From: a virus
Reading direction: 5' to 3' (one strand)
Virus record (IMG/VR): IMGVR_UViG_3300037247_000692
Location: 1-21,981 of that record
Length of the DNA stretch: 21,981 nucleotides
A program made the translations under genes and the position numbers. Below, in pieces: positions 3,195-18,146 of the stretch. Position 1 is the first letter of the stretch, and every line of letters begins with the position of its first letter. The notes beneath the pieces were generated by a model. The model was not told the origin of the DNA, ran no database searches, and saw nothing but the letters and a program-made list of their open reading frames with translations.

Positions 3195-3606
3195 CTAGCA
3201 CAAAAGAAATTCGCTATACTACCGCGCAGCGGTATCCTAAATTGCAGGCTAATAAAAGAGGGGTAATTGCCTATGCAGTATCGCTAACCTCATAGAAGGT
3301 TCTCTTATCAACCGTTAGTAGATTGTGTTTCGCCATGCGGTGGCAATAAGTAGCCTTAAATGAAGTTATTAAACTTCGGCCGCAAACGTTTTCGGGTTCC
3401 CTTGTGAGCGTGCTCACCTGGGATTTAAAGCCCTGGCAACTTCATCTCCACGACGAATGTTGCCAGGCGGAGGCAGAAGAGAAGTATCCAAGGGTGGACA
3501 AACTACTGGGCGCCACGACGCTACAGGGACAAACCCACCGCTCTCGTGAGGAGAACAGCGGAACATTGATAGTTCGCCTCTTCTGTCTTTTTCTTGGGGG
3601 TAACTA
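3195..3606 (+). ncRNA. Array of hairpins, candidate noncoding RNA or leader
   Basis: This gap of more than 400 bases has no convincing gene but a dense series of stems. These are TACCGC/GCGGTA (3220-3234), AACCT/AGGTT (3286-3301), GAAGTT/AACTTC (3362-3377), TCCC-GTGAGC/GCTCAC-GGGA with a 2x2 internal loop (3398-3423), and a perfect 9-bp stem extended by inner pairs (3432-3467). A weak terminator follows at 3552-3594. A GTG frame at 3404-3607 (67 codons) lies across the stems and lacks a ribosome-binding site, so I do not call it a gene. A four-codon minigene (ATG CAG TAT CGC TAA, 3273-3287) sits behind AGAGGGG at 3257-3263. The extent of the RNA is a guess. Confidence 0.4.
3552..3594 (+). terminator. 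Imperfect hairpin with T-rich tail
   Basis: AGAACAGCGGAAC (3552-3564) pairs imperfectly with GTTCGCCTCTTCT (3572-3584), followed by a TCTTTTTCTT tract. This is the only left-arm structure that looks like an intrinsic terminator. It would separate the structured region from the long operon beginning at 3621. Confidence 0.4.
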
Positions 3607-3620
3607 AGAGGGGTTGAATA

Positions 3621-3848
3621 ATGATAGCAAAGTGCATTTCATGTCACCACGAAATTCAGTGCGTGACTAACGTTGAGCCTTGCGATTGGTGCGGTCACCC
3701 TATGAAGTCAATAGGAAGTGACTACGTGTCAGATTGCGACGATACCATCACAGATCACAAACGCCCAATGAGTATTCCAGAAGACGACTCAGAACTGCCT
3801 TTAGATTTTATGCTAGATGGAGTTGATTCATCGTTACGGATTAAGTGA
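3621..3848 (+). CDS. Small zinc-ribbon-like protein
   Basis: The product is 75 residues from an ATG behind AGAGGGGTTGAATA. The N-terminus carries two cysteine knuckles, C5-x2-C8 and C21-x2-C24, the layout of a minimal zinc ribbon or rubredoxin-like knuckle. The rest is acidic and probably flexible. Such phage proteins are often adaptors or transcription or replication accessories, but no specific role can be read. It is the first gene of the packed operon running to the DNA polymerase. Confidence 0.7.
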   Translation: MIAKCISCHHEIQCVTNVEPCDWCGHPMKSIGSDYVSDCDDTITDHKRPMSIPEDDSELPLDFMLDGVDSSLRIK

Positions 3849-3856
3849 GGGGAATA

Positions 3857-4354
3857 ATGGAAACAAAAAGTTGGATAACTATAGATAGAAAGGCACAAGG
3901 TTGGCCAAGTGGCGAATGGGATGACGAGCCTGATAAAATACAATGGTCTGATAAAGTAACTGGGCTTCCTTGTTTGGCAGTAAGACATGAAACTTCAGGA
4001 CACTGGTGCGGTTATGTTGGTGTACCAAATAATCATGTACTTTATGGAGTTGAATATAGTGATGTACCGTGGGAAATTCAAGAAGATGTTCACGGTAGTT
4101 TAACATTTTCACAAAAATGCACCAAAGACAAGCTTGAATCAGAAGGAGTATGCCATAGACCTGGAGATGGAGAAACCGACGATATTTGGTGGTTTGGTTT
4201 TGACTGTGCTCATTCTGACGATATAACGCCAATACTTCTTAGTTTGGATAATGGTAGATTCATAGGTAGATTTTCTGCTGGGCACCATTCATATAAATCA
4301 ATTAGATATATTCAAGCAGAATGTAAATCATTTGCAGAAAAACTAGCAGTATAA
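3857..4354 (+). CDS. Conserved phage protein of unknown function
   Basis: The product is 165 residues from the ATG at 3857, preceded by GTGAGGGGAATA. An upstream GTG frame overlap at 3845 is less likely. The pattern of WCGYVGVPNNHVLYGVEY, VHGSLTFS, then WWFGFDCAHSDD resembles, from memory, a hypothetical family common in phages and bacteria, with conserved His, Trp and the FDCAH segment. No biochemical role is known to me. It is soluble, without signal peptide. Conserved His, Cys and Asp residues could form a metal or catalytic site, but that is speculation. Confidence 0.75.
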   Translation: METKSWITIDRKAQGWPSGEWDDEPDKIQWSDKVTGLPCLAVRHETSGHWCGYVGVPNNHVLYGVEYSDVPWEIQEDVHGSLTFSQKCTKDKLESEGVCHRPGDGETDDIWWFGFDCAHSDDITPILLSLDNGRFIGRFSAGHHSYKSIRYIQAECKSFAEKLAV

Positions 4355-4367
4355 ATGGTGAGGGGAA

Positions 4368-4970
4368 ATGATCGAAACGTTAAGGGTAGCAAGAACGCTT
4401 AGCGCAGTCCAAAGATATTCACAAACGCGCCTGTTGAATCCAGAATCCGTTATGGAGCATACTGGATTTAATGGGCTTGTTTGTTATGTGATTTGCGAGA
4501 GACTAAATGAACTAGGTGAAGAACTAAATACTGGATTAGCTGTAATGAAAGCCATAGTTCATGACGTTGATGAAATCATCACTGGCGATATACCTATGCC
4601 AACTAAATATTACAGTAATGACATAACTAAATCGTTAAAGAAACTGGCTAGTGATGCTATTGTTGATATTGCTATGAATCTAAATCTACCTAAAATGATT
4701 AAGCATTGGGAAGAAGCAAAATTTGGAAGAGAAGGTGCAGTAGTTGCCCTCGCAGATATTATCGCTGTGGTTAATAAAGTCTGGCAAGAATCTGTAGAGT
4801 TCAGCAATACAAGTATCGTTTCTCACGTCGGGCCAACGCGCGAAATTGTGTTTGAAAGGATAGACGCGCTTGGAGAAATGTTGGAAACGAAAAAAGGCAG
4901 AGCAGAATTGATTAGGATGGGTGAAGATCTTGACATCCTACTTTCACAAATAGAAGCAAAGAGAACGTAA
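4368..4970 (+). CDS. HD-domain nucleotidase, YfbR-like
   Basis: The product is 200 residues from an ATG behind GTGAGGGGAA. It has the HD phosphohydrolase signature in order: R16-Y-S, M-E-H31, H65-D66, E69-x3-GD74-x2-MPTKY, and a late Asp (D130 in LADII). This matches the YfbR family of 5'-deoxynucleotidases, which hydrolyse dNMPs. Related phage HD enzymes such as DatZ instead remove dATP in phages with 2-aminoadenine DNA. The product would act in the cytoplasm on the deoxynucleotide pool. It shares a TAATG junction with the ThyX-like gene, so the two are probably translated together. Substrate cannot be told from sequence alone. Confidence 0.85.
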   Translation: MIETLRVARTLSAVQRYSQTRLLNPESVMEHTGFNGLVCYVICERLNELGEELNTGLAVMKAIVHDVDEIITGDIPMPTKYYSNDITKSLKKLASDAIVDIAMNLNLPKMIKHWEEAKFGREGAVVALADIIAVVNKVWQESVEFSNTSIVSHVGPTREIVFERIDALGEMLETKKGRAELIRMGEDLDILLSQIEAKRT

Positions 4971-6067
4971 TGGAAATGAACGTTGTTGCTGAAAGCTGGA
5001 CTGGTAAGCTATCGAATGCACATCTTTCCGATATAGCTTGGTCATACTCTAGACCTGGTGATACCGAAACTCACGAAAACATATGCCAACTTGACGCTTC
5101 TATAAATGAAATACCTAGCGTTGTAGTTCAAGTTAAGTCAACAGCTATTGAACGTGAGATAATTACTACGATGCGGGATCACGTTATTTGGGCTAGAACT
5201 TCCCGCGTCGATGATGTGACAAAATTTACTGTACCTAGATTCTTCAAAAATGATTATCCACTCTATTACGATATACAATTCAAAATGCAAAAGGCTAAGA
5301 ACGCTGGAGTTACACAGGATGAATTTAGGCTTATGCTTCCTTTAGTCCATGAGACTCAATACATGGCTAGATTTAGTATGCGTTCTTTACATAAACTCTA
5401 TCACGAATATGAAAGATTGTCAGCTACCTGTATTGCTAACGATGTAGCTATGATGTTCAAAGAAGCTTCCGAAGTTACTTGGGATATTCTAGATGAGATG
5501 GGAATTGTGCATAACGATTGTAAAGAATACGATTTGCTACCTACTCCATCTAGTTTTGTCCACGGCAGAGTGCTTAGGGCAAACTCGATTATTTCTTGCC
5601 AATTGCGCGTGCCATTTTCACTTCGTACACACATAGTTCGGCATAGGAATCTCAATATACTTGATGAACTTCGCAAACTATGTATATTTGGAAGCATGGC
5701 TACTCTTAATTTACATACAGAAATTGAAATGGAAATTTCTGGTACATATTCAGACTGGGATTATGTTTTATCTAAGCGAAGTTGTTGGATGGCGCATCAA
5801 GGTCTTTGGGCACCGTTAGTTAAATTGGTATCATCAACGTTAAATTGTCCAATAACGTTACCGTGTGCGAATGGTAGTTGCCCTTATGAAGTAGATGCGA
5901 AATTGAGACTAACAGATGTTGACCCTGGATCACCTTGCCCTGAATATGCAGAGTTGTATGATATAAAATTAACTAGATCTCAATTGAATGACATGACTAA
6001 AACTGTAGTCTCTGAAGCTAGGTCAAGTTTCTGGACCAATAAAATTCGCAAATTGGAAGCCAAATGA
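4970..6067 (+). CDS. Divergent ThyX-like protein
   Basis: The product is 365 residues starting in a TAATG overlap (a second ATG lies two codons on). Residues 215-235 hold an RHR (224-226) after PFSLRTHIV, as in flavin-dependent thymidylate synthases. The Ser of the classical RHR-x7-S motif is replaced (RHRNLNILDEL). Residues 117-150 (LPLVHETQYMARFSMRSL) look like the conserved C-terminal part of ThyX but come before the RHR. The protein may therefore be rearranged or internally duplicated. Length exceeds a typical ThyX (about 220-250). Extra cysteines (C293, C299, C304, C323) suggest a metal site. It could methylate or hydroxymethylate dUMP, or modify another pyrimidine. The neighbours are all nucleotide enzymes. 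Family assignment is moderate and activity uncertain. Confidence 0.55.
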   Translation: MEMNVVAESWTGKLSNAHLSDIAWSYSRPGDTETHENICQLDASINEIPSVVVQVKSTAIEREIITTMRDHVIWARTSRVDDVTKFTVPRFFKNDYPLYYDIQFKMQKAKNAGVTQDEFRLMLPLVHETQYMARFSMRSLHKLYHEYERLSATCIANDVAMMFKEASEVTWDILDEMGIVHNDCKEYDLLPTPSSFVHGRVLRANSIISCQLRVPFSLRTHIVRHRNLNILDELRKLCIFGSMATLNLHTEIEMEISGTYSDWDYVLSKRSCWMAHQGLWAPLVKLVSSTLNCPITLPCANGSCPYEVDAKLRLTDVDPGSPCPEYAELYDIKLTRSQLNDMTKTVVSEARSSFWTNKIRKLEAK

Positions 6068-6552
6068 TAACTCCTATAAAAGTCTACATAGCAAGTCCAT
6101 TTTTCAATCCTATTCAATTAGAAAGAGTTAAGTGGATTGAAGAGACTCTTGATGAACTTGGCATAAATTTTTTCTCACCTAGATCATTCGGAACACTACA
6201 AGGAATGACGATAGAAGAAAAGCGTATATCATCTAAAAAAATCTATAATTCTAACGTAGATAACATCAAAGATTGCAATGTATTTCTAGCTGTTCTTGAT
6301 GATAAGGATACTGGAACTATATTTGAACTTGGATATGCAGCAGCTTACACGGAATACGCAACTAGTGAAAATGCGTGGCAAGATGCAATTACTATAGTTT
6401 CGATGAGTTTTGAAGGAAAAGGTTTGAACGTAATGCTTCGTGAATGTGTTGACACGCATATTTCTAGCAAAGATAAATTTCGTAGCATACTTTGGAAAAT
6501 TAGAAATGGACAAGAGTTACCTAAGCATCTAGATGAAGGTGATATTGAATGA
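6064..6552 (+). CDS. Nucleoside 2-deoxyribosyltransferase-like protein
   Basis: The product is 162 residues, coupled to the previous gene by ATGA. It begins VYIASPFF, followed by QLERVKWIEETL and FFSPR, the pattern of the NDT/DRTase fold. D66 and D79 lie where family acidic residues sit, and E88 in GTIFELGYAAA fits the catalytic nucleophile. Such enzymes swap bases between deoxynucleosides or hydrolyse the N-glycosidic bond of deoxynucleoside monophosphates. The substrate cannot be read. Placed between the ThyX-like and dehydrogenase genes, it probably acts in salvage or in making an altered nucleotide. Confidence 0.8.
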   Translation: MITPIKVYIASPFFNPIQLERVKWIEETLDELGINFFSPRSFGTLQGMTIEEKRISSKKIYNSNVDNIKDCNVFLAVLDDKDTGTIFELGYAAAYTEYATSENAWQDAITIVSMSFEGKGLNVMLRECVDTHISSKDKFRSILWKIRNGQELPKHLDEGDIE

Positions 6553-7313
6553 AGGAAAAAATCTCAGCTACATATATCCAAGATCAAAAATCACTTCACT
6601 CTCGCAAGCTACTTCCTAAGCCAAGACGTTGTGTTGTCACTGGAGTATCGCCAAATAATATCGGAGAAAAAATTGCCGATTTGCTTGAACGTACAGATTT
6701 TGAAGTATACATTCAAAGTCACGAGAGAGGTGACTTAACGGATATAAATGTAATATTGCGAATGCTTTATGTGCACGAAAATATAGACACTATCATTTTA
6801 TGTCACGCAATAGCTGAATTGAGTTGGATTGAAGATCAAAAACATGAACAAGCTAACAGAATAATTGACGTTAATCTAATCAGCAATATGAAAATCATAG
6901 CTGAATTTGCAAAGATGACTATGAAGTGGTCTTGTCGTAAAACGATTATCGTTATTGGTTCAATGGCAAGTAGTATGGTAGCAAATGGATCTGCTCCATA
7001 TTGCGCTTCTAAAGCTGGACTTCAACATTATATTAAGTGTGCCGCGTGGGAACTTGCGCCAAAAGGATTTGATGTTTATCTCATTAACCCTAGTAACGTT
7101 ATTGATACTCCTATGACTAATCGAATTATTGAAGACCTTGCAGAGTTTCGCAATATCACACTAGAAGAAGCTTACAGTTATTGGGGCTCAACTAGCGTGC
7201 GCGGAGAATTTTTGCAGAAGGGTGAGATAGCTAAATTAACTCGTGACTTAGCACTCGGCAAATTTCCGTATCTATGTGGAACACCTCTAAATATGACAGG
7301 CGGGCAACGATGA
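6549..7313 (+). CDS. Short-chain dehydrogenase/reductase
   Basis: The product is 254 residues, joined to the upstream gene by ATGA. It has a Rossmann cofactor motif T31-G-V-S-P-N-N-I-G39, N109, catalytic S138, and Y151-C-A-S-K155 (YxxxK), so the full active site of a classical SDR is kept. The first 24 residues are an extra basic N-terminal extension. The usual NNAG motif reads LCHA, a divergent feature. It should oxidise or reduce a carbonyl/alcohol with NAD(P)H. The end of the fold (GTPLNMTGGQR) matches SDR enzymes acting on sugars or acyl groups. Context suggests a nucleotide sugar or modified nucleoside, but the substrate is unknown. Confidence 0.85.
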   Translation: MKEKISATYIQDQKSLHSRKLLPKPRRCVVTGVSPNNIGEKIADLLERTDFEVYIQSHERGDLTDINVILRMLYVHENIDTIILCHAIAELSWIEDQKHEQANRIIDVNLISNMKIIAEFAKMTMKWSCRKTIIVIGSMASSMVANGSAPYCASKAGLQHYIKCAAWELAPKGFDVYLINPSNVIDTPMTNRIIEDLAEFRNITLEEAYSYWGSTSVRGEFLQKGEIAKLTRDLALGKFPYLCGTPLNMTGGQR

Positions 7314-7591
7314 GTGTTATAGATATATTTGCGAAAGCTGTTGAAACATTCAAAGAGCGTGAAGAAAAATATGGTGATACTCGCTACCCTGTAACAAAAA
7401 TATTGCGGATATTATATCCAAATGGTATTAGCCTGTCCACTGAGCAAGATTTTCTTGAGTTCCACATCTTCCAATTAGTTATAGGGAAAATAGTGCGCTT
7501 CGCATACAGTGGTGACCAAGATTCAATTCACGATGCTGGTGTATATTCATTTATCCTAGAAGATATTGTTGAGGACAAAAAACGTGGATAA
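7310..7591 (+). CDS. Small phage protein with ERExYG and K/R/D motif (DUF6378-like?)
   Basis: The product is 93 residues from the ATG at 7310 in an ATGA overlap; an earlier in-frame start at 7274 would intrude into the SDR gene. The conserved-looking features are EREEKYGD, FHIFQLVIGKIVRFAY and DSIHDAGVYSFILED. This reminds me of a small all-alpha phage family (DUF6378) whose acidic and Lys/Arg positions resemble MazG-type nucleotide pyrophosphohydrolases. The likeness is from memory and weak. If correct, it would hydrolyse a dNTP, consistent with its neighbours. Confidence 0.7.
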   Translation: MSVIDIFAKAVETFKEREEKYGDTRYPVTKILRILYPNGISLSTEQDFLEFHIFQLVIGKIVRFAYSGDQDSIHDAGVYSFILEDIVEDKKRG

Positions 7592-8306
7592 TATTTTCAT
7601 CGTCAAAAATTTAGAGTGGGCATCAGCATCTATCAAGCAAAAAATAATTGTTGGAATAGCTAAAAAATTCGGTTTGAATATACCAATCGCACAACCAAAA
7701 TATGCTGGAATGTTGTCTACTCTCGAAAAACGCATGAATATGTCAATGCTCATAGATCAAGTTCTTGCATATAATATTGAAGGTGATGTTGTTGAAGTAG
7801 GATGCAACGATGGGAAGTCAGCTTGTTTATTTCAAACTTATTTACAACATTATGATCTGAAAAAGTCATTACATGTTTACGATAGTTTTGTAGGTTTGCC
7901 TACGCCTAGTTATAAAGATGAATTCCATTATTCTACTGGCGATATGGCTGCTAGTGTTGAACAATTGGTGGAAAACTTTCACTCATTAGGCTTAAACGTG
8001 CCAAATATTTATCCTGGATGGTTTAAGGATACTCTCCCTAAAATGCTGCCAGATAAAATTTGCTTCGCACATCTAGATGGTGATTTTTATGAGTCGATTT
8101 TGGAAAGTTTAATCTATGTGTATCCTAGATTAACTATGGGGGCAGTTTGTTTGATAGATGATTATGCAGATCCTGTTATACATAAATCGTCTAATAAACT
8201 TCCTGGTGTCAAGAAAGCGTGCGACAAATTTTTCGAGAATAAAAAAGAATCTGTTTCTATACTCTACGCAGGATATTATTCACACGGGTATTTTAGAAAG
8301 TTTTGA
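7584..8306 (+). CDS. TylF-type O-methyltransferase
   Basis: The product is 240 residues from the GTG at 7584, with GAGGA at 7571-7575, preferred over a TTG at 7566. It overlaps the upstream stop by 8 bases. The SAM-binding segment is GDVVEVGCNDGKS (67-79), followed by VYDSFVGLPTP, then PGWFKDTLP, HLDGDFYES and LIDDYADP. This is the full motif order of the TylF/macrocin O-methyltransferase family, including the metal-binding acidic residues. Family members methylate hydroxyls on sugars of antibiotics and glycans. In this operon it may methylate a nucleotide-linked sugar, a phage DNA modification or a host surface glycan. The target is unknown. Confidence 0.85.
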   Translation: MDNIFIVKNLEWASASIKQKIIVGIAKKFGLNIPIAQPKYAGMLSTLEKRMNMSMLIDQVLAYNIEGDVVEVGCNDGKSACLFQTYLQHYDLKKSLHVYDSFVGLPTPSYKDEFHYSTGDMAASVEQLVENFHSLGLNVPNIYPGWFKDTLPKMLPDKICFAHLDGDFYESILESLIYVYPRLTMGAVCLIDDYADPVIHKSSNKLPGVKKACDKFFENKKESVSILYAGYYSHGYFRKF

Positions 8307-8836
8307 TTTTCATAGACACTGAGACTACAGGGCTATTGAAGCCTGATGCAATAACCATGAACTTGCAACCGTTCATAACGGAATTGTATGCTGTTAAACT
8401 TACTGATAAGCTAGAATTTATTGACGAAGTTGACACGCTTATCAAACCACCTATTCCTATTCCAGAACATATAACTAAGCTAACCGGCATTACAGATGAG
8501 CATGTTGCGAACGCTCCGAAATTCATTCATATTTACCAAAAGCTAGTTGATCTATTTCTAGGCGAACGTGTAGTTGTCGGCCACAACATTTCGTTTGATC
8601 TTGGCATGCTGTATTGTGAACTAACTAGAATTAACTATCAATACCATTTCCCTTGGCCGCAAGTTTGGGTTTGTACTGTTGAGAAATCCGTACCTATAGA
8701 AAATAGACGCTTGACTTTAAGTAGGCTACATGAATTAGCTACGGGAAATCCACACGAAGATTCGCATAGAGCAAAGGCAGATACTCATGCCACAATTCGT
8801 TGCTTTAATTGGCTTAGCGAGCAGGGATTGATATAA
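8303..8836 (+). CDS. DEDDh 3'-5' exonuclease (DnaQ-like proofreader)
   Basis: The product is 177 residues, beginning at a TTG that overlaps the upstream TGA (TTGA). All catalytic residues are visible: D5 and E7 in FIDTETTG, D99 in GHNISFDLGML, and H155 with D160 in SHRAKADTHAT. It is a stand-alone epsilon-type domain without the C-terminal extension that binds polymerase in E. coli. It should remove mismatched nucleotides at the 3' end during replication by the polymerase encoded next. Its stop codon abuts the tRNA without a single spacer base. Confidence 0.9.
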   Translation: MIFIDTETTGLLKPDAITMNLQPFITELYAVKLTDKLEFIDEVDTLIKPPIPIPEHITKLTGITDEHVANAPKFIHIYQKLVDLFLGERVVVGHNISFDLGMLYCELTRINYQYHFPWPQVWVCTVEKSVPIENRRLTLSRLHELATGNPHEDSHRAKADTHATIRCFNWLSEQGLI

Positions 8837-8911
8837 CAGGAGTTAGTTTAACGGGTAAAACAGTGGGTTGTGGCCCCGCAGAAGTCGGTTCTAGCCCGGC
8901 ACTCCTGACCA
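8837..8911 (+). tRNA. tRNA-His (anticodon GTG), CCA encoded
   Basis: The cloverleaf reads as a perfect 7-bp acceptor stem CAGGAGT/ACTCCTG, a D stem GTTT/AAAC with an 8-base GGG-containing loop, and an anticodon stem GTGGG/CCCGC with one G-U pair. The anticodon loop TTGTGGC gives GTG at 8870-8872. The variable loop has 4 bases, and the T stem GTCGG/CCGGC carries the loop TTCTAGC. The discriminator is A8908, followed by CCA. Position -1 is A (the last base of the upstream stop codon), so the usual G-1:C73 pair of tRNA-His is absent. The gene lies inside the operon between exonuclease and polymerase. Confidence 0.93.
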
Positions 8912-8922
8912 TAAAGGATAGT

Positions 8923-11751
8923 ATGATTCACCTAGCACTGAGAACTGAATATAGCTTCAAGAAGTGTTACGGATTCTTGGATGATCTTCCTAAAATAGCG
9001 AGCGATTCTCTAGCAATCGGTATCGCCGACAATAACAATACGTTCGGTCACGTTAAGCATCACAAGAACTGTAGGAAGAATGGAATCAAGCCTATACTCG
9101 GCGTGAGACTTATGGTGTGTGATAGGCCAATAGAAAAGAAAAAGACGTTTGGACCAATCTATATTTTCATAGCCAAGAACGTTGAGGGACTAACCGAAAT
9201 ATACAAATTGGTTAGATTAGCTTATAGCCAATTCTATTATCATCCTAGACTATTTCAATCAGATCTTGTTAAGGTTAGTCCAAATGTTTTCGTAATAGCA
9301 AACAATTTTAACATTTCAAATCGCATAGACTTCATAGCCTTAGATCAAACTACACCTAAAATTTTAGCTAACTTGACAGGTATTCCTAGAGTTGCTATTT
9401 GCTTGAATTGGTACACAAACATTGATGACAAAATAGTGTATCAACTTCACGCTGGCGAACGCGGAATGGAATCGCAAACTTATCCGCAGCATATTTTATC
9501 TGATGAAGAATGGCTGTATATGTGGCCTAATAGGATCAATGAACTATCGCTTACACATGATATCGCAGCGTTGTGTGAAAATTATGATTTACCGCGTGCG
9601 CCTATGGTTAAATACAAAGGCAAAATAACTCTTAGGCAACTATGTGAAGCTGGCGCAAGAACGCGTGGAATAGATCTTAAAAATGGAGCGTATAAAGATA
9701 GATTTGAACGTGAAATGAAGTTGATTCTTGAAAGAAAATATGCCGATTATTTTCTAATCGTAGCACAGATGATCAAGTCAGCTAAAAATAAAATGTTGGT
9801 TGGTCCATCTAGAGGATCATCAGCTGGATCATTAGTGTGCTACCTAGCTAGCATAACTGAAGTAGATCCGTTGAAATTCGATTTGTTGTTTGAAAGATTT
9901 ATCGACATCAATAGAGCTGATTTGCCGGATATTGACATTGACTTTCCAGACCTCAAACGCAAGGTAGTTATCAAAACGTTAGTTTCACTGTACGGTGAAG
10001 AACACGTTAGCAGGATCTCAACAATATCTAAGATGAATCCTAAATCGGCTATCGGCGAATTTGCTATGGGGCTTTGTATTCCAGCTTATGAAACCGATGC
10101 TGTTAAAAATTCTATCATCGAAAGATCTACTGCTGATGCGCGTGCGATGATGAGAATAGAAGATACGTTTGAATCGACAGAAGTCGGCATGGATTTCATA
10201 AAGAAGTATCCTGAAATGATGGTCGTTAAGCAAATAGAAGGACACGCTAGACACGCGGGTGTTCACGCAGCTGGCGTTATCGTTTGTAATGAGCCTTTGA
10301 CAAATTACGGTGGCATAAACGTCAGAAACTCTGCGTTGATGATGGACTACAAAGATGCCGATAGCATAAACCTTTTGAAGATAGACTGCCTTGGACTTAG
10401 AACGCTATCAATTTTAGAATCGGTAGCAGATCAAATCAACATGCCGTATAAAAAATATTACAAGTTACCTCTAGATGATGAAAAGGTATTCGATATTTTC
10501 AATAGTTTGAGGCTAATTGGGATATTCCAATTTCAAGGTAACGCGCTTCAATATGTTACGCGGCAAATGGGAGTGCATAATTTTGACGATATCTGTGCTA
10601 TTGGGGCACTTGGTAGACCTGGCCCGATACACAGTGGCGGAACTAACATATTTATTAGTAGGCGCACTGGTGCTGAGCCTGTTGAATATTTATCAAACCA
10701 TCCAAGCGTCGTTAAGCACACAAAAGAAACCTACGGAGTTATCATCTATCAAGAACAATTGATGATGATAGCTAGAGAATATGGCGGATTGAGTTGGGAA
10801 GATGTAAGTGAGATTAGAAGATCTGCTAGCAAAAGCCTTGGAGAAGAATATTTTGGAAAGTTCAAAGACAAGTTTGTAACTGGCGCAGTCAAAAACGGAG
10901 CTAATGAAGATGAGGCTAGCAAAGTTTGGGACAACATGGTTACATTCGGATCATGGGGCTTTAACAAAAGCCATGCGTATGGCTATGGTCTTATTTCTTA
11001 TTGGACTGCTTGGGCTAAAACTTATCATCCACTTGAATTCGCAGTAGCTAATCTCAATAACGCTAAGAGTGATGAGCAAGCGGTTAAACTTTTGAGAGAT
11101 ATGGTAAGGCACGATGGCCTTGAATATACAGCATTTGACGCTGATCTATCTGTAGAAGAATGGTCAGTACAGGATGGTAAATTGCTAGGCGGGTTGAAGA
11201 GTTTGCACGGTATCGGACCTAAGAAAGCGAAAAATATTTTGGAAGCAAGAGCAGGCAAACGTGACTATACATCAGCTATGATTAGAACTATGATGGATCC
11301 AGAAACTCAATTCAATATTTTGTTCCCGTGCGAACATTGGTGGGGCGATTTCTTTACTAAGCCTCAAGAGTTTGGGCTAACCAAACCACCTGCGGCAATC
11401 GAAACTATCTTGGAGCCTGGTGAATATCTTCTAGTTGGCAAGATGATGGATCGTAACTTACGTGACTTGAATGAAACTCAATCACTAGCACGCAGAGGCG
11501 GTCAATATATTACAGATCACAAATTCTTCCTAAACCTAATTCTTGAAGACGATACTGACACGATTGTTGTGACCGTTAATCGGTACAGATATGAAGAATT
11601 AGGCCGAGAGATAGCCGAGTCTGGCAAAGTTGGTCACGATTGGTATTTAGTAAAGGGAGTCATCAAGGATAAATGGCGTAGGATAGACGTTACCCAAATT
11701 ATGAACTTGAATAATTGGGGTAAAGAAAATCATATGGGGCCAGATTCTTGA
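8923..11751 (+). CDS. dnaE: DNA polymerase III alpha subunit (C family)
   Basis: The product is 942 residues from the ATG at 8923, behind AAAGGA just after the tRNA CCA. Earlier in-frame GTG codons lie inside the tRNA. It replicates phage DNA. The N-terminal PHP domain (about 1-230) is degenerate: the HxHxH motif reads HLALR and the TDH motif reads ADN, so no PHP nuclease is expected. The catalytic core is intact: GPSRGSSAGSL, D336 and D338 (PDIDID), D488 (LLKIDCLGLRT), GRPGPIHSGG, YQEQLMMIA, and GFNKSHAYGYGLISYW. A helix-hairpin-helix (GIGPKKAKNI, about 763) and a C-terminal OB-like domain follow. It is shorter than E. coli DnaE (1160). No intein interrupts it. Confidence 0.95.
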   Translation: MIHLALRTEYSFKKCYGFLDDLPKIASDSLAIGIADNNNTFGHVKHHKNCRKNGIKPILGVRLMVCDRPIEKKKTFGPIYIFIAKNVEGLTEIYKLVRLAYSQFYYHPRLFQSDLVKVSPNVFVIANNFNISNRIDFIALDQTTPKILANLTGIPRVAICLNWYTNIDDKIVYQLHAGERGMESQTYPQHILSDEEWLYMWPNRINELSLTHDIAALCENYDLPRAPMVKYKGKITLRQLCEAGARTRGIDLKNGAYKDRFEREMKLILERKYADYFLIVAQMIKSAKNKMLVGPSRGSSAGSLVCYLASITEVDPLKFDLLFERFIDINRADLPDIDIDFPDLKRKVVIKTLVSLYGEEHVSRISTISKMNPKSAIGEFAMGLCIPAYETDAVKNSIIERSTADARAMMRIEDTFESTEVGMDFIKKYPEMMVVKQIEGHARHAGVHAAGVIVCNEPLTNYGGINVRNSALMMDYKDADSINLLKIDCLGLRTLSILESVADQINMPYKKYYKLPLDDEKVFDIFNSLRLIGIFQFQGNALQYVTRQMGVHNFDDICAIGALGRPGPIHSGGTNIFISRRTGAEPVEYLSNHPSVVKHTKETYGVIIYQEQLMMIAREYGGLSWEDVSEIRRSASKSLGEEYFGKFKDKFVTGAVKNGANEDEASKVWDNMVTFGSWGFNKSHAYGYGLISYWTAWAKTYHPLEFAVANLNNAKSDEQAVKLLRDMVRHDGLEYTAFDADLSVEEWSVQDGKLLGGLKSLHGIGPKKAKNILEARAGKRDYTSAMIRTMMDPETQFNILFPCEHWWGDFFTKPQEFGLTKPPAAIETILEPGEYLLVGKMMDRNLRDLNETQSLARRGGQYITDHKFFLNLILEDDTDTIVVTVNRYRYEELGREIAESGKVGHDWYLVKGVIKDKWRRIDVTQIMNLNNWGKENHMGPDS

Positions 11752-12887: not shown

Positions 12888-13313
12888 CTAATTTTTATCA
12901 CTTGCGTTCCATACTTCGGAAAATCTCTTACCTCTTGTATCAACAAAATGACCATAATCCCAAGTCAAAGTTTTCTTTAGATCACAAGCAGCACAAATTC
13001 TTCTTAGTCGATCCCAAGGCCAGTCCATGCTCCAGTTCTTTCTACCAGGGAATCGACCTTGTTTCTTGAAGGCCCAGTCAATTGCTCTAGCTTTTGGCTT
13101 ACCATTTTTTCTAAGATTGTGCCAGCCTCTCTTTACCTTAGTAACTATTTTGCCAGGAGTAGTGCGCCCTTGGTTGTAAAGTTTCATCTGACGACTTAAT
13201 TTGTCATATGTTCGTATTCTTTTGAGTGGATACCCATAAGCTGCCATCGCAGCTTCAACAGCTCTACCTCGCATGGCTGTTCCTGGATCTAGATCATCAA
13301 AAGATTTACTCAT
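12888..13313 (-). CDS. M15-type peptidoglycan peptidase (endolysin)
   Basis: The product is 141 residues; its start overlaps the upstream stop region by 8 bases. The segment LYNQGRTTPGKIVT is the characteristic lead-in of phage M15/VanY-type endolysins. Zinc ligands are then expected at H65 (GWHN), D79 (ARAID) and H122, with D119 in DYGH as the catalytic acid. These enzymes cut peptide cross-bridges of peptidoglycan (L-Ala-D-Glu or D-Ala-D-Ala bonds). The spacing from first His to Asp is 14 positions rather than the usual 7, caused by an insertion NLRKNGKPK. No signal peptide is seen, so a holin should be needed. Confidence 0.75.
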   Translation of the reverse strand: MSKSFDDLDPGTAMRGRAVEAAMAAYGYPLKRIRTYDKLSRQMKLYNQGRTTPGKIVTKVKRGWHNLRKNGKPKARAIDWAFKKQGRFPGRKNWSMDWPWDRLRRICAACDLKKTLTWDYGHFVDTRGKRFSEVWNASDKN

Positions 13314-13572
13314 TGACCTTCACACCTACCTTTGCACACTCATCTTTATCCTTCAATTTTTCATTCAAACATAGTTCTTTTGTGAGTGAGGCTTTAGCTT
13401 CATCAGCTGTATCCTGTGAAATATGAATATCACGAAGCTGTTCAATATATGCTTCATTTATGTTTGCTTTATCTTCAGTCTCTTGAGAAGATGAAATATG
13501 ATTAAGACCAAAAGCAACAACTACCACTATAGAGACAATAGCACCAGCCCACTTTGCAATTTTAATAATCAT
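13306..13572 (-). CDS. Membrane-anchored small protein, possible inner-membrane spanin
   Basis: The product is 88 residues from an ATG behind GGGGGAT. Residues 1-8 are basic, 9-24 form one membrane helix (AGAIVSIVVVVAFGL), and the remaining about 60 residues are polar, helical and mostly acidic. Basic-in topology places this part in the periplasm. Two cysteines in the C-terminal part (LCLNEK, DECAK) could form a disulfide. Topology and position just before the endolysin fit an i-spanin, but no family is recognised. Confidence 0.6.
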   Translation of the reverse strand: MIIKIAKWAGAIVSIVVVVAFGLNHISSSQETEDKANINEAYIEQLRDIHISQDTADEAKASLTKELCLNEKLKDKDECAKVGVKVNE

Positions 13573-13574
13573 GG

Positions 13575-13784
13575 CTATCCCCCATTGATTCTCTTTAATT
13601 GACCCTCCACTGATGCAACTCTTTCGCCAAGTTTCATTAAAGTTTTATCACACCTCGCAGTATTCTCTACTGTCTCATTGAGTTTCACTTCAATAGTTGT
13701 AAATTTCTTTGAACCTTTCCATGCTATTGAAGCTACAGATGCCAATACTGCGACGGGTACAAGATCCAAAATAACTTGAAGCAT
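13575..13784 (-). CDS. Small TM plus coiled-coil protein
   Basis: The product is 69 residues, beginning in a TAATG overlap with the tail-fibre gene. A membrane helix (about 5-22) is followed by a heptad-like amphipathic helix (TIEVKLNETVENTARCDKTL, ERVASVEGQLKRI). The layout resembles small phage hemolysin/holin-associated proteins of the XhlA type, though without a clear motif. It is the first gene of the lysis cassette. Confidence 0.6.
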   Translation of the reverse strand: MLQVILDLVPVAVLASVASIAWKGSKKFTTIEVKLNETVENTARCDKTLMKLGERVASVEGQLKRINGG

Positions 13785-15058
13785 TAGATACTCGGCGCAA
13801 AATGATCACGATAACCAAGCACGTTTACTTCCAGCGTACCATTCAACGTTCTAGTAATTGCGTAAGAGAATTGAGGCGAGGCAGGGACTGTGACTGGAAT
13901 ACTCATCTCAGCCAAACCAAAGCCGTTAATATCGCCGCCACTATCCCAAACAGTTGCATAGAGGCAGAAAGGTCCACTTGTTCCCATCGCAGAAATACGA
14001 TTAGCCAACGCCGTAACAGCACCAGTAGCATTACCAACAGCAAAACCAAGTAGGCCAGAAGCAGAAGGTGACTCGCCATGCGCGCTCAAAATTATATGCG
14101 AAGCTGTTTCTGGCAAGTTAACGGCTTGGGTTTTCCAAACTACTGCCGCAGTAGCACTAGGCGAGATTTGGTGATCTCCGTCCATGTTAATAAATCTGAC
14201 TTCTTGGCCAGGGCCCCAAATCGTATTCACAATATCTTCACCAGCATCGTTCCAAAAACTACCAATACAAAGTTCATCTGTACGGGTGGGATGGTATCCA
14301 ACAACTCCAGCAGCACCAGGAAGTACAGGCGGAGTAACTGAAATAACGGGAGTCATAACTCCAGCAATATCATCAATGTATAGATAGTAAGCTGTAGAAA
14401 CAGCTTCAGATCCAACATCAAGAACTGAACCGCCGACACCAAAATCATCTAGTATGAATATTAGATCCGCAGATCTGGTAAGGATCTTGCCATTAATAGC
14501 CATCACAATGTTACCAAATGTACCAGGACTCAACGTTATTGTTGTAACATCTGTTGTAACTAGATGGCCAATTTTCAAATTAGCAGGACTACCTTGTAGA
14601 GCAACAAGTTCATCAGAAGACCATCTTGAAACATTAAATCTATCATTTGATAAATCAAATCTAAGCCAAGTATCACGAGTAGTAGCAATATCACTTGGGG
14701 CCAGAACAGCACCATCCTCTCTTGTGATATTTTTAACACCAAGACCATCTACATTTACAGTAGATGCCCCTGTATTAGCATTAGTTGCTCGGAATCTAAC
14801 TACCATTCCATCAAAATAATTAGGCGGAGCTTGTATGCCAGTTATTCTTGTAGCAACATAAGCGTCAGCTGGACCGCTACCAGTATAAAATTGACTAGCA
14901 GCAGCATAAGCAGCAAGACCTTTACCAAGTTGATCTAGATCAGCTGTGGTAAGAGCTTGACCCCAAGCTTCAATAATATTTTGTAGCTCTGACGGCACCT
15001 CATTCCATTCTGCGGCCGTCAGAGTACCACTAGTAACTTTGTCATTCAGATCTTGCAT
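13784..15058 (-). CDS. Tail fibre protein
   Basis: The product is 424 residues from an ATG behind TAGGAG. The N-terminal part (about 1-160: ADAYVATRITG, DGMVVRFRATNANTGASTVNVDGLGVK) is a repeat-like beta-structured segment typical of phage tail fibre N-termini. The remainder is Gly/Thr/Val-rich, with many short beta stretches and no catalytic motif. It directly follows the gp48-like gene, the usual place of the fibre gene in Mu-like clusters. It probably attaches to the baseplate edge and binds the host surface with its C-terminal half. No chaperone gene follows. Confidence 0.75.
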   Translation of the reverse strand: MQDLNDKVTSGTLTAAEWNEVPSELQNIIEAWGQALTTADLDQLGKGLAAYAAASQFYTGSGPADAYVATRITGIQAPPNYFDGMVVRFRATNANTGASTVNVDGLGVKNITREDGAVLAPSDIATTRDTWLRFDLSNDRFNVSRWSSDELVALQGSPANLKIGHLVTTDVTTITLSPGTFGNIVMAINGKILTRSADLIFILDDFGVGGSVLDVGSEAVSTAYYLYIDDIAGVMTPVISVTPPVLPGAAGVVGYHPTRTDELCIGSFWNDAGEDIVNTIWGPGQEVRFINMDGDHQISPSATAAVVWKTQAVNLPETASHIILSAHGESPSASGLLGFAVGNATGAVTALANRISAMGTSGPFCLYATVWDSGGDINGFGLAEMSIPVTVPASPQFSYAITRTLNGTLEVNVLGYRDHFAPSI

Positions 15059-15067
15059 TACTATCTC

Positions 15068-15676
15068 CTAGAATGGATTTTCAAAAACTACTTCTACATT
15101 AGCTGGTTTAATTTTATCGAACAAGCACTCCAAAAGCGCAAAATCATTTGTTCCAAATGTTATCGGAAACGTATATGGAAATGTTTCACCAATAGGCACA
15201 GTAGCCCTGACTATTATTGTATGAGTAGCTGCTTCACCAGTTGGATAAAATTTGATTGGAAATACAAATGGAAATGCTCCATGTACAGATCCACTTTCTA
15301 CTTCAATTGGTATGCCAAATTTCAACGCAAACGCAACAAACTCTTCAGCAGTCTGAAGATTGGAACATCCAAGTTTTATTACAATATGAAGTCTACGTTC
15401 ATCATCAGTTCCAACAACGCTGAAACAACTATCAGGTATACCAACTGCCTTTTCCCATTCACTGATATAAAATTCAGTCATATCTGGAACGGTATCAACA
15501 CGAAACAAAGCTATAAGAGCATCAACTCTCAAAAATTCTCTAGCAAAACCAAGAAGAAGTTTTCTTATATTTGTACTAACAATATTTTTAGCAGCAAACG
15601 CTTTACCACCAGGCAAATAATTTGCTATTGTCTGAGCTTGTTGCTGCTTTGATAGTACAACGGGAATATTGCTCAT
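15068..15676 (-). CDS. Mu gp48-like baseplate protein (DUF2313/YmfQ family)
   Basis: The product is 202 residues; its ATG overlaps the stop of the J-like gene (ATGA). The pattern QTIANYLPGGKAF, LLLGFAREFLRVDALI, and FYISEWEKAVGIPDSCFSV is that of the DUF2313 family. These proteins lie at the tail-tip edge of Mu-like baseplates and link the wedge to the tail fibre. The C-terminal half repeats FPYTFPI-like strands. Its place between gp47-like and fibre genes matches Mu. Confidence 0.85.
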   Translation of the reverse strand: MSNIPVVLSKQQQAQTIANYLPGGKAFAAKNIVSTNIRKLLLGFAREFLRVDALIALFRVDTVPDMTEFYISEWEKAVGIPDSCFSVVGTDDERRLHIVIKLGCSNLQTAEEFVAFALKFGIPIEVESGSVHGAFPFVFPIKFYPTGEAATHTIIVRATVPIGETFPYTFPITFGTNDFALLECLFDKIKPANVEVVFENPF

Positions 15677-16992
15677 GGGAATGTTACATTTCCAAGTGTG
15701 CCAATTTCACCAGCAGCTATAACAATATCAGCTGGTGGTGTAGTTAAAGTAAAACTAACCAATTTATCACCAGTAACTAAATCAATTGTATTGAAAATAG
15801 CAGCATTATATGCTTCTTCAACTATAGTTACGCCAACCAATGTTCCCTCGGCAAAAAATTGCTTTAGACTATTTTCAATAGCAGTTCTCATAGTTGATGT
15901 ATCTGGAGAGATAGCGCTGAATGTAAAATCAGTTGATACAGGAGTTGGTGCCTCAACAATTACGCTAAGAGTATCTGTGTTAGCTGGCTTGATAGCATCT
16001 ATAGCTGCTTTCACAGTAGCTACTTCAGAAGAATCTGGTATTGTATTTGCATCATTATCTCTCATAAAACGAATAGTAACAGCACCAACTACTGGTGTTA
16101 TTTCTTCAACGAAAACTCTAGTCACTCCAGATACAGCTTTAGCAACATCTATAATCTGAGCTACATTAAAATTAGCAATTGGATTTTGTATACGCTCCAA
16201 CAATCTCAAGCGTAAATCAGCATCACTTTCTTGATCTGCTCCACCTCCCAATGCTCCAAAATCTACGCTAGCATTAGTATCAACATCTGTGATTGGACTC
16301 TGTAAAGAAAGTACAGTATCAAAAAGTTGATTCTGATCCACTCCAAAATCATCAGACTGAACTGGAATAGATACAGAAGTGAATCCAAGAAGAATAGTGC
16401 CAGTAGCTGGAGTTGATGGTGAACCAGTTACTGCATACGTTAAAGTTTTATCACCAGTTACAGTAACCACAGCATCGACTACATTATATTCAGTTTCTAC
16501 AGCTCCTGTTATTGTTATCAAAACGTTTGATGCTATAAGATGATCGTTTACAGTAGTGAGAGTAGCTACAGTACCAACTCTAGTAATTGAGGCAACGTTA
16601 AGAGATTGAAGAACAATGCTACCACCAGCAGTAGCTTTATATTGTTTACCATCACTAGCAACCCAAGTAGTTGCATCAGCTCCTGTGATAATAACTCCGC
16701 CAACAGTTCCGGTGACAGCCAATCTTCCATTAGCTGTGGTAGCTGCTGTTCTAAGAATTTGCCAAATAGCTGCCCATTGCTCCAAGTTAAGAGTAGCAGT
16801 ATCAGGAATTGCTTCTAGCTCAGCTCTTTTAAGAGCAAAGTAAAAATCAAATACTCTATTGGCTAAAGAAGTAGCAAGAGCACCAATCCAACTATTCTTT
16901 AGAAATGGATTAGAGTTTGGCAGCTCTCTACTAATATCAACCTTTATACGTTGATCTACTTCAGTTGCTGTTTCAGGTACATCAAGGGCCAT
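15673..16992 (-). CDS. Baseplate J-like protein (Mu gp47-like)
   Basis: The product is 439 residues, starting in a TAATG overlap. The N-terminus (NPFLKNSWIGALATSLANRVFDFY, then LEQWAAIWQI) and the central region (GALGGGADQESDADLRLRLLERIQNPI) are characteristic of the baseplate J / gp6-like wedge family. The C-terminal part (AVSGVTRVFVEEITPVVGAVTIRFM, EAYNAAIFN) completes the fold. It forms the wedge arms of the contractile tail baseplate. Length is normal for Mu gp47-like proteins, with an extra beta-domain inserted around 110-200. Confidence 0.92.
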   Translation of the reverse strand: MALDVPETATEVDQRIKVDISRELPNSNPFLKNSWIGALATSLANRVFDFYFALKRAELEAIPDTATLNLEQWAAIWQILRTAATTANGRLAVTGTVGGVIITGADATTWVASDGKQYKATAGGSIVLQSLNVASITRVGTVATLTTVNDHLIASNVLITITGAVETEYNVVDAVVTVTGDKTLTYAVTGSPSTPATGTILLGFTSVSIPVQSDDFGVDQNQLFDTVLSLQSPITDVDTNASVDFGALGGGADQESDADLRLRLLERIQNPIANFNVAQIIDVAKAVSGVTRVFVEEITPVVGAVTIRFMRDNDANTIPDSSEVATVKAAIDAIKPANTDTLSVIVEAPTPVSTDFTFSAISPDTSTMRTAIENSLKQFFAEGTLVGVTIVEEAYNAAIFNTIDLVTGDKLVSFTLTTPPADIVIAAGEIGTLGNVTFP

Positions 16993-18146
16993 TATATTAT
17001 ATCCCCAATTATTAAACCCATCAACGCAAAGAATACATCATTACCATTTTTTATAATTGATGGACCTCTTCCGCCACCAAGGCCAGGAGATGTTCCAGCT
17101 CCATCAGTACCAAGTCCATCTCCTAATGCGCCTGCACCATTTCCGCCAGTCCCAACATCTTCTCCACCTCCACCTCCACCTCCAGCTCCACCTGAAATAA
17201 TTCCACGATTTATTATTGTTACATCATGAAATAATTCAAGAGCTGCAAATCCATTATTGCCATTTGTAGCACCGTGAGTAGATGTAGCTCCAGACACAGC
17301 TCCAATACTTCCAAGGCCACCGCTAAATAGCCCTCCAACTAAACCATCATGAGCGCCATCGTCCGATCCACCACCAACACCAAATGTTGCTCCACCACCG
17401 CCTCCACCGCCAATACTACCATCACCAAGATCGCCACCACCGTCGCCACCTTTACCACCACCACCAAAAATTATTGAATTTATTGTGTTACCTGAAATCA
17501 ATATTGTAGTATCTGGATGCCAAGGACCGCCAGTACTCATAGCAACAGCAGCAACTGGCACTATACTAGAAGAATAATTTACAACAACATCAACGGCATT
17601 ACTTGGTTTACCAGCCAACTCAAATATATTTATAGTAGGACCAACACTAGAAACTGGTATAGTAAGCGTTATATTATTTGGTATATCTGGACAAGGTATA
17701 GCGGTATTATCCCATAGCGTGAAAAATCGTCTATCAACTTCAGAGTTTGGACGATTTATTACAACTTCAAGATTTATACCATTAGGAGTTATTACAGCCT
17801 CAACACTTTTAATTGCCGTAGCAAATCCATCGTCTACCAACCATTGCAAAGCATCTCTAGCAGCTATAATTATTCCATTAAGCACAGTTATAGTTAGTCT
17901 AGATTGTTCAAAAAGCCAAATCTTAGAACCTATTTCAAAATCTGGTGTGCTTTCATTACCTATCCAACCACGTCTCAATCTAGATACTGCAACTTCAGAT
18001 TCATTTGCTCTACGCTCAGCAAACAAACTAACTATAATAGCAGAATCGAAAAAATCTACTGATAGAATATCGCCATCTACACCAATATCTAAATCAAATA
18101 GATCGCCAGCTATTTGTTTTAGACAAGCGTCAATTCCAACTGTCAT
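16992..18146 (-). CDS. gp46-like baseplate protein fused to a glycine-rich adhesin-like domain
   Basis: The product is 384 residues. Residues 1 to about 150 (LDIGVDGDILS, ESEVAVSRLRRGWIGNE, GSKIWLFEQSRLT, RDALQWLVDDG) match the Mu gp46 / gp25-like wedge protein, normally a stand-alone protein of about 140-150 residues. Residues about 150-220 form a beta segment (INIFELAGKPSNAVDVVVNY), and 220-384 contain several poly-Gly blocks (up to 7 Gly in a row) separated by Asp/Ser/Ala. The latter resembles polyglycine-II receptor-binding tips of phage adhesins. The fusion suggests that the baseplate wedge itself carries a receptor-binding element. The start follows the spike stop by zero bases, with AAGGGTG ahead. 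Confidence 0.85.
   Translation of the reverse strand: MTVGIDACLKQIAGDLFDLDIGVDGDILSVDFFDSAIIVSLFAERRANESEVAVSRLRRGWIGNESTPDFEIGSKIWLFEQSRLTITVLNGIIIAARDALQWLVDDGFATAIKSVEAVITPNGINLEVVINRPNSEVDRRFFTLWDNTAIPCPDIPNNITLTIPVSSVGPTINIFELAGKPSNAVDVVVNYSSSIVPVAAVAMSTGGPWHPDTTILISGNTINSIIFGGGGKGGDGGGDLGDGSIGGGGGGGATFGVGGGSDDGAHDGLVGGLFSGGLGSIGAVSGATSTHGATNGNNGFAALELFHDVTIINRGIISGGAGGGGGGGEDVGTGGNGAGALGDGLGTDGAGTSPGLGGGRGPSIIKNGNDVFFALMGLIIGDII

What the first reader, a model, noticed from the sequence alone, without database searches (positions are those of the whole stretch)
4368..8306. Nucleotide-modifying gene set next to a phage replicase: possible pathway for an altered DNA nucleotide
Six coupled genes encode an HD nucleotidase, a divergent ThyX-like protein, a deoxyribosyltransferase-like protein, an SDR, a small protein that may be a pyrophosphohydrolase, and a TylF methyltransferase. 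They are followed by exonuclease and polymerase. Seen: motifs and tight overlaps. Known: phages with modified bases pair a synthesis enzyme with HD or MazG-type enzymes that remove the normal dNTP. Inferred: this set could build and protect a modified nucleotide, with the SDR and TylF acting on a sugar or base side group. The combination is not one I know as a named system.
Basis: partly seen in the sequence, partly recalled or inferred. Interest (0 to 1): 0.7.

Follow-up and report, generated by a model that had tools for sequence, protein, structure and literature searches.

The report
Phage gene set for altered thymine
This fragment of an uncultured phage carries a compact gene set whose central enzyme belongs to the same rare family as one in phages SP-15 and YerA41, both shown to replace thymine in their DNA with bulky modified bases; its constant partner genes suggest that the extra carbon chain could be taken from a nucleotide's own sugar.

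Summary
In detail: 4368-8306 encodes, in tight overlap, a YfbR-like HD nucleotidase, a very divergent ThyX-like protein, a nucleoside deoxyribosyltransferase (NDT), an SDR, a small DUF6378-like protein and a TylF-type methyltransferase, followed by exonuclease, tRNA-His and DNA polymerase III. The six genes are not one unit. In 50 related viral contigs the core ThyX-like/NDT/HD is constant (NDT 50/50, HD 49/50), whereas SDR (3/50) and TylF (0/50) are variable cargo, and DUF6378 is a general phage protein with no sign of being a pyrophosphohydrolase. The ThyX-like protein is homologous to gp130 of Bacillus phage SP-15 (thymine partly replaced by 5-(4',5'-dihydroxypentyl)uracil) and to a Yersinia YerA41 protein (about 1 kDa added to thymidine). 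In SP-15 an NDT and an SDR lie beside gp130, as here. NDT is absent from five phages that make hydroxymethyl-pyrimidines with ThyA-type enzymes. Best reading: a pathway for a C5-hypermodified deoxyuridine nucleotide replacing dTTP. I propose, not proven, that HD plus NDT release 2-deoxyribose and the ThyX-like flavoenzyme couples this C5 aldehyde to dUMP, with SDR and TylF tailoring the chain.

The parts
4368..4970 (+). HD-domain 5'-deoxynucleotidase (YfbR/OxsA/DatZ superfamily), metal-binding residues intact; core gene
   Evidence: present in 49/50 related contigs
4970..6067 (+). divergent ThyX-like protein of the SP-15 gp130 family (365 aa); core gene, proposed dUMP C5-alkylating flavoenzyme
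6064..6552 (+). nucleoside 2-deoxyribosyltransferase-like protein (NDT), catalytic motifs intact; core gene
6549..7313 (+). short-chain dehydrogenase/reductase (FabG/YmfI-like); variable tailoring gene
7310..7591 (+). small all-helical DUF6378-like protein (ORF also listed from 7274); part of the replication neighbourhood, function unknown
7566..8306 (+). TylF/MycF-type sugar O-methyltransferase; variable tailoring gene (alternative start GTG 7584)
8303..8836 (+). DEDDh 3'-5' exonuclease, polymerase proofreading type; conserved neighbour
8837..8911 (+). tRNA-His (anticodon GTG) between exonuclease and polymerase
8923..11751 (+). DNA polymerase III alpha (family C); conserved neighbour

Best explanation
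The cluster makes a nucleotide that replaces some or all dTMP in the phage's DNA: a deoxyuridine carrying a carbon chain larger than methyl at C5, of the kind known from phage SP-15 and probably YerA41. Shown by homology: the ThyX-like enzyme is of the SP-15 gp130 family and is inseparable from an NDT and, nearly always, a YfbR-like HD nucleotidase. Inferred: the HD enzyme strips phosphate from a deoxynucleotide; the NDT-like enzyme cleaves the resulting deoxynucleoside and frees 2-deoxyribose, a five-carbon aldehyde; the ThyX-like enzyme activates an aldehyde on its reduced flavin and couples it to C5 of dUMP, giving a 5-(polyhydroxypentyl)-dUMP that is phosphorylated and used by the neighbouring polymerase III; in this phage the SDR adjusts the oxidation state of the chain and the TylF-type enzyme O-methylates one of its hydroxyls.
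For: Family: window protein finds YerA41, GN1, phiXF1, GXN1 and Va2 by tblastn; GXN1's protein finds SP-15 gp130 at 40%; window-group profile against SP-15-group profile aligns over 302 columns, E 1.5e-27; the SP-15 protein is the second structural hit in the viral library, TM 0.66. Chemistry of relatives: SP-15 DNA contains 5-(4',5'-dihydroxypentyl)uracil, and its gp130 was proposed as the C5-modifying synthase and said to have no homologs (PMC5977210); YerA41 thymidine carries about 1 kDa (PMC9023294). Linkage: NDT in 15/15 records and 50/50 contigs, HD 13/15 and 49/50. Control: NDT in 0 of 5 phages with ThyA-type hydroxymethyl-pyrimidine synthases, SPO1, Vi01, M6, phiW-14, T4. Order NDT-SDR-ThyX in SP-15. 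Mechanistic precedent: ThyX can take free formaldehyde through a flavin carbinolamine (PMC8316439). A 1978 title reports label from ribose entering SP-15's dihydroxypentyluracil (reference list of PMC5977210; the paper itself was not readable here). No ThyA and no Thy1 match over the cut-off in 18 records.
Against: No nucleoside analysis exists for this phage. To my knowledge the NDT product, the HD substrate and the ThyX-like reaction are untested in any of these phages. NDT enzymes are usually transferases between bases, so a base-exchange or base-removal role is possible. In SP-15 the HD gene lies 27 kb from gp130, and Va2 lacks a recognisable one. The SDRs of SP-15 and the window are not clearly orthologous. 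The window lies in the YerA41 clade, deeply split from the SP-15 clade, so the product may differ from SP-15's.
Confidence: 0.6

Rival explanations
1. The ThyX-like enzyme is a flavin-dependent hydroxymethylase that makes 5-hydroxymethyl-dUMP, and HD and NDT merely destroy normal thymidine nucleotides so that the modified one is used; larger groups are added later on the DNA, as in phages Vi01 and M6.
For: The SP-15 authors proposed gp130 as hydroxymethyluridylate synthase. HD and NDT could together degrade dTMP to thymine. phiW-14 is known to remove dTTP.
Against: NDT is absent from all five tested phages that make hydroxymethyl-pyrimidines, and YfbR-type HD from four of them, so these genes go with the ThyX-like chemistry and not with pool depletion in general. 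SP-15 retains nearly half its thymine. Kinases or glycosyltransferases of the Vi01 type were not sought in this fragment.
Confidence: 0.25
2. Ordinary thymidylate synthesis and nucleotide salvage: the ThyX-like protein makes dTMP, and HD and NDT recycle host nucleotides; the DNA is not modified.
For: No other thymidylate synthase was found in 18 records, and ThyX plus nucleotide salvage genes are common in phages.
Against: The family never reaches the Thy1 cut-off, has altered the usual RHR motif region, and two members sit in phages with measured hypermodified thymidine. SP-15 has a separate likely thymidylate synthase, gp9.
Confidence: 0.1
3. The SDR and TylF genes have nothing to do with DNA: they decorate a surface sugar or a small molecule and were inserted by chance into this locus.
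For: TylF occurs in none of 50 related loci and SDR in 3; phage TylF relatives are annotated as glycosyltransferase/methyltransferase in mycobacteriophages.
Against: Both sit inside the overlapping gene run between core genes, and SDRs recur beside the core in L002, L013, L052 and SP-15.
Confidence: 0.3

Closest known systems
Bacillus phage SP-15 gp127-gp129-gp130 (NDT, SDR, ThyX-like; 5-(4',5'-dihydroxypentyl)uracil DNA)
   Same: Homologous ThyX-like protein; NDT and an SDR within 2 kb of it; YfbR-like HD gene elsewhere in the genome
   Different: Deeply separate clade; SP-15 NDT has a second NDT-like half; HD gene is 27 kb away; SP-15 polymerase is annotated as DNA polymerase I-like and the phage has a teichuronic-type sugar cluster; no TylF seen beside it
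Yersinia phage YerA41 (about 1 kDa substituent on thymidine)
   Same: ThyX-like protein on the window's side of the family tree, NDT 2.3 kb downstream, YfbR-like HD gene present
   Different: Genes not in one operon; large genome with glycosyltransferases; its modification is only partly characterised
Canonical ThyX flavin-dependent thymidylate synthases (T. maritima TM0449) and PolB
   Same: Fold and the conserved 'LPL...T...RSL' region
   Different: The phage protein is much longer, RHR-type motifs are altered, and scores are below curated family thresholds
ThyA-type hydroxymethyl-dUMP/dCMP pathways (SPO1, Vi01, M6, phiW-14, T4)
   Same: A modified synthase feeding a pre-modified dNTP to the phage polymerase
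   Different: Non-homologous synthase; no NDT in any of the five
PurZ/DatZ/MazZ 2-aminoadenine system
   Same: An HD nucleotidase of the DatZ superfamily next to a replicative polymerase
   Different: No PurZ among the window proteins scanned; HD is closer to YfbR than to DatZ

Membership tests
SP-15 gp130 family of ThyX-like proteins | Significant near full-length homology to SP-15 gp130 | tested here: met
   Profile-profile alignment over 302 columns, E 1.5e-27; intermediate tblastn links
SP-15-type hypermodified-thymine pathway | NDT gene beside the ThyX-like gene | tested here: met
   window 6064-6552 overlaps 4970-6067 by 4 bases; SP-15 gp127 lies 1 kb upstream of gp130
SP-15-type hypermodified-thymine pathway | Modified thymine present in virion DNA | not testable with these tools
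   No culture; needs mass spectrometry
Canonical ThyX (PF02511 / TIGR02170) | Score over curated cut-off | tested here: not met
   Window protein 15.7 bits against 24.8; none of 18 records over the cut-off; no NCBIfam hit for the window protein
Canonical ThyX (PF02511 / TIGR02170) | ThyX fold | tested here: met
   Foldseek top 50 PDB hits are ThyX or PolB, best E 2e-4, partial cover of the query
YfbR-like 5'-deoxynucleotidases (PF12917) | Score over cut-off and HD metal residues | tested here: met
   64.3 against 25.9 bits; H31, H65, D66, D130 invariant
Nucleoside 2-deoxyribosyltransferases (PF05014) | Score over cut-off and catalytic Glu motif | tested here: met
   56.4 against 28.8 bits; D-x-G-x-x-x-E and N-x-M invariant across 14 relatives including SP-15
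MazG-type pyrophosphohydrolases (for the small protein) | Sequence or fold match to MazG/dUTPase all-alpha NTP-PPase | tested here: not met
   No Pfam MazG hit; relatives match DUF6378; no PDB fold match with E below 2
TylF/MycF O-methyltransferases (PF05711) | Score over cut-off | tested here: met
   106 against 23 bits; NovP and MycF among the closest solved structures
ThyA-type hydroxymethyl-dUMP pathway | ThyA-family synthase (PF00303) | tested here: not met
   0 of 18 records that carry the ThyX-like gene; none among 20 window proteins scanned; the window is a fragment
PurZ 2-aminoadenine system | PurZ (adenylosuccinate synthetase family) | tested here: inconclusive
   None among the 20 window proteins scanned with Pfam, but the record is a fragment

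The most novel reading that the evidence does not exclude
A previously undescribed way to build a DNA base: the phage takes 2-deoxyribose out of a normal deoxynucleotide (HD then NDT) and a ThyX-derived flavoenzyme attaches that five-carbon sugar aldehyde to C5 of dUMP, giving a 5-(polyhydroxypentyl)deoxyuridine. This would explain the origin of SP-15's dihydroxypentyluracil and would fit YerA41's nucleoside-plus-spacer unit of nominal mass 346 (5-(3,4,5-trihydroxypentyl)-2'-deoxyuridine, C14H22N2O8, is 346.14 Da). The mass match is nominal only and could be a coincidence.
Probability: 0.3. Interest if true: 0.88.

Novelty: new variant of a known kind. Interest (0 to 1): 0.62.

Why it matters
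How SP-15 makes its five-carbon thymine side chain has been open since the 1970s, and the chemistry of YerA41's heavy thymidine is unsolved. The 2018 SP-15 paper said gp130 has no homologs; here it has several dozen, and its constant partners (NDT, HD) name a three-enzyme pathway that can be reconstituted in a test tube. If right, it adds a folate-free route for C-C bond formation on a nucleotide and gives a recognisable gene signature for phages whose DNA may resist restriction enzymes and sequencing.

Tried and rejected
(1) Close DNA relatives in phages: none. (2) ThyX-like relatives in bacterial and archaeal genomes: none by the pattern search; the family looks viral, though that scan finds only close relatives. 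(3) A six-way alignment was too diverse for collection scans; narrower alignments worked. (4) Small protein as pyrophosphohydrolase: rejected. (5) Tandem duplication inside the ThyX-like protein, suggested by two RHR-like stretches and a repeated strand-helix pattern in the model: not supported by profile comparison of the halves (E 0.73), left open. (6) HD as a 2-aminoadenine-system dATPase: PHROG 7076 carries that name but the solved-structure profile puts YfbR and OxsA well ahead of DatZ. (7) SDR orthology with SP-15 gp129: weak (E 0.003), although both have the EF-P 5-aminopentanone reductase YmfI as best NCBIfam match, below its cut-off. (8) The 1978 SP-15 labelling papers are not held. 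(9) Promoter and terminator scan: no terminator-like site in 3500-9200, promoter-like sites near background.
Full report
What is there. The window is a 21,981-base linear viral record from IMG/VR. Its left half reads on the + strand and ends with replication genes; its right half reads on the - strand and encodes Mu-like baseplate and tail proteins. Domain assignments: YfbR-like HD (PF12917 E 1.5e-17), weak Thy1 (E 0.013), nucleoside deoxyribosyltransferase (PF05014 3.9e-15), SDR (PF13561 2.4e-19), no Pfam match for the small protein, TylF (PF05711 2.6e-30), then RNase_T-type exonuclease (1.4e-22) and PolIII-alpha. A tRNA-His lies at 8837-8911, so the polymerase probably starts at ATG 8923. 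The small gene probably starts at 7310.

What the ThyX-like protein is. By sequence alone it is below the Thy1 threshold, but a model built from 20 viral sequences (pLDDT 84.5, pTM 0.80) matches only ThyX enzymes and the ThyX homologue PolB among the best 50 PDB hits. In phage records it finds Xanthomonas phiXF1 (32%), Yersinia YerA41 and GN1 (28-29%), Streptococcus GXN1 and Vibrio Va2. From GXN1 the family extends to Bacillus SP-15 gp130 (40%), Cobetia Carin-5 and two more Vibrio phages. The window-side profile aligns to the SP-15-side profile over 302 columns with E 1.5e-27. The best hits in the library of predicted viral structures are a 377-residue protein (the length of the Va2 protein) and the SP-15 thymidylate synthetase. 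A maximum-likelihood tree splits the family in two, SP-15/GXN1/Carin-5/Vibrio against YerA41/phiXF1/window and the environmental contigs; window and L002 are sisters.

Why that matters. SP-15 DNA has more than half its thymine replaced by 5-(4',5'-dihydroxypentyl)uracil, and the authors of its genome proposed gp130 as the hydroxymethyluridylate synthase, adding that it has no homologs (PMC5977210). YerA41 carries a substituent of about 1 kDa on thymidine (PMC9023294); that paper's main text does not mention thymidylate synthase or ThyX. So the two members for which I found chemical data on the DNA are both hypermodified at thymine.

Gene neighbourhood. Of 50 viral contigs with the ThyX-like gene, 50 have an NDT, 49 of them overlapping or within 2 bases; 49 have the HD gene; with enough sequence downstream, 32 of 33 have DUF6378, exonuclease and PolIII. 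Two gene orders occur, HD-ThyX-NDT and ThyX-NDT-HD. What lies between the core and the exonuclease changes: HAD-like phosphatases, a phosphoribosyltransferase-like protein, a glyoxalase-like protein, SDRs, and only in the window a TylF methyltransferase (the HAD and phosphoribosyltransferase names are my reading of the sequences, not a library hit). Many of these contigs are near relatives, so the counts overstate the number of independent cases; the stronger evidence is that the association also holds in unrelated cultured phages: over whole records NDT is found in 15 of 15 and YfbR-like HD in 13 of 15. In SP-15 the order is NDT, small ORF, SDR, ThyX-like; in two Vibrio phages HD, ThyX-like, NDT, then an NTP pyrophosphohydrolase. 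Conversely, the window NDT finds only 8 of 50,697 phage records, five with the ThyX-like family and two more (Geobacillus GR1, and Listeria LIS04, the latter filed in the same genus as SP-15) with an NDT a short distance from a ThyX-annotated gene.

A control that separates two readings. If NDT and HD served only to remove normal thymidine nucleotides, they should also accompany other hydroxymethyl-pyrimidine pathways. In SPO1, Vi01, M6, phiW-14 and T4, all with ThyA-type synthases, NDT is absent from all five and a YfbR-type HD match occurs only, weakly, in M6. NDT therefore goes with the ThyX-like enzyme. Five phages is a small control set.

How it probably works. Shown: family membership, linkage, intact catalytic motifs in HD and NDT. 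Established elsewhere: YfbR-type enzymes make deoxynucleosides from deoxynucleotides and NDTs break the deoxynucleoside glycosidic bond (my knowledge of the families); ThyX can dispense with folate and take an aldehyde, formaldehyde, as a flavin carbinolamine (PMC8316439). Inferred: the aldehyde here is 2-deoxyribose from HD plus NDT. That would give a five-carbon polyol chain on uracil C5; loss of one hydroxyl and reduction, for which the SP-15 SDR is a candidate, would give a 4,5-dihydroxypentyl chain. A paper title from 1978 reports label from ribose in the SP-15 base (seen only in the reference list). The nominal 346 unit in YerA41 equals a trihydroxypentyl-deoxyuridine (346.138), but only nominal masses are printed and it is unclear whether 346 is an ion or a neutral loss. 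In the window, SDR and a TylF/MycF-type sugar O-methyltransferase would then have a sugar-like chain to act on. I hold the general pathway at about 0.6 and the deoxyribose donor step at about 0.3.

Right: the gene identities, their coupling, the link to replication, and the inference of an altered nucleotide. Wrong or unproven: the six genes as one unit, and the small protein as a pyrophosphohydrolase. That protein is DUF6378-like, is found by tblastn in 360 phage records, most of them Pseudomonas phages, with matches in E. coli phages annotated as part of a polynucleotide kinase/phosphorylase, and its four-helix model matches no NTP pyrophosphohydrolase.

Limits. The record is a fragment, so genes for sugar transfer or nucleotide kinases may lie outside it. 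No ThyA and no Thy1 match over the cut-off was found in 18 related records, which leaves an ordinary role in dTMP supply possible for some members. The library of papers holds only open-licence texts, so earlier work on this family may exist elsewhere.

Noticed in passing
8837-8911: A tRNA-His gene sits between exonuclease and polymerase, overlapping the start of the longest polymerase ORF, which suggests that the listed GTG start at 8863 is wrong.
   Followed up: yes
3845-4354: Gene just upstream of the HD gene matches phrog_2164 (unknown function, 4.7e-28) and, weakly, a MazG-like family (phrog_28554, E 0.0076).
   Followed up: no
L075 and L077 (Geobacillus phage GR1): Another arrangement of NDT, thioredoxin, HD, glycosyltransferase and, 4-5 kb on, a FAD-dependent thymidylate synthase; a candidate further modified-DNA phage.
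   Followed up: partly
L076 (Listeria phage LIS04) 5968-8620: A phage filed in the same genus as SP-15 with NDT followed by a ThyX-annotated gene of a different type, plus a full-length ThyA elsewhere.
   Followed up: partly
L006 (Vibrio phage Va2) 11818-19530: Downstream of ThyX-like and NDT lie a dUTPase, a TPP-binding protein, ribonucleotide reductase and a phosphoenolpyruvate mutase, hinting at a phosphonate, on the DNA or elsewhere.
   Followed up: no
L060 (SP-15) 2055-2792: 7-cyano-7-deazaguanine synthase is annotated about 8 kb upstream of gp130, so SP-15 may carry a second base modification.
   Followed up: no
L057 (phiXF1), record 30132-30374: A second, weak Thy1-like match in phiXF1 (E 8.3e-5), apart from the family member at 55467-56654.
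   Followed up: no
L054 9932-11603 and L052 14855-18171: The ThyX-like gene in L054 and the polymerase in L052 appear split over two ORFs, by frameshift, sequencing error or true division.
   Followed up: no
window 12888-21980, - strand: Strand switch to Mu-like baseplate hub, wedge, GpP-like, tape-measure and endolysin-like genes: the phage probably has a contractile tail.
   Followed up: partly
window 4970-6067, protein residues 69-79 and 219-233: Two RHR-like stretches and a repeated strand-helix pattern in the model suggest an internal ThyX duplication, but profile comparison of the halves does not support it.
   Followed up: partly
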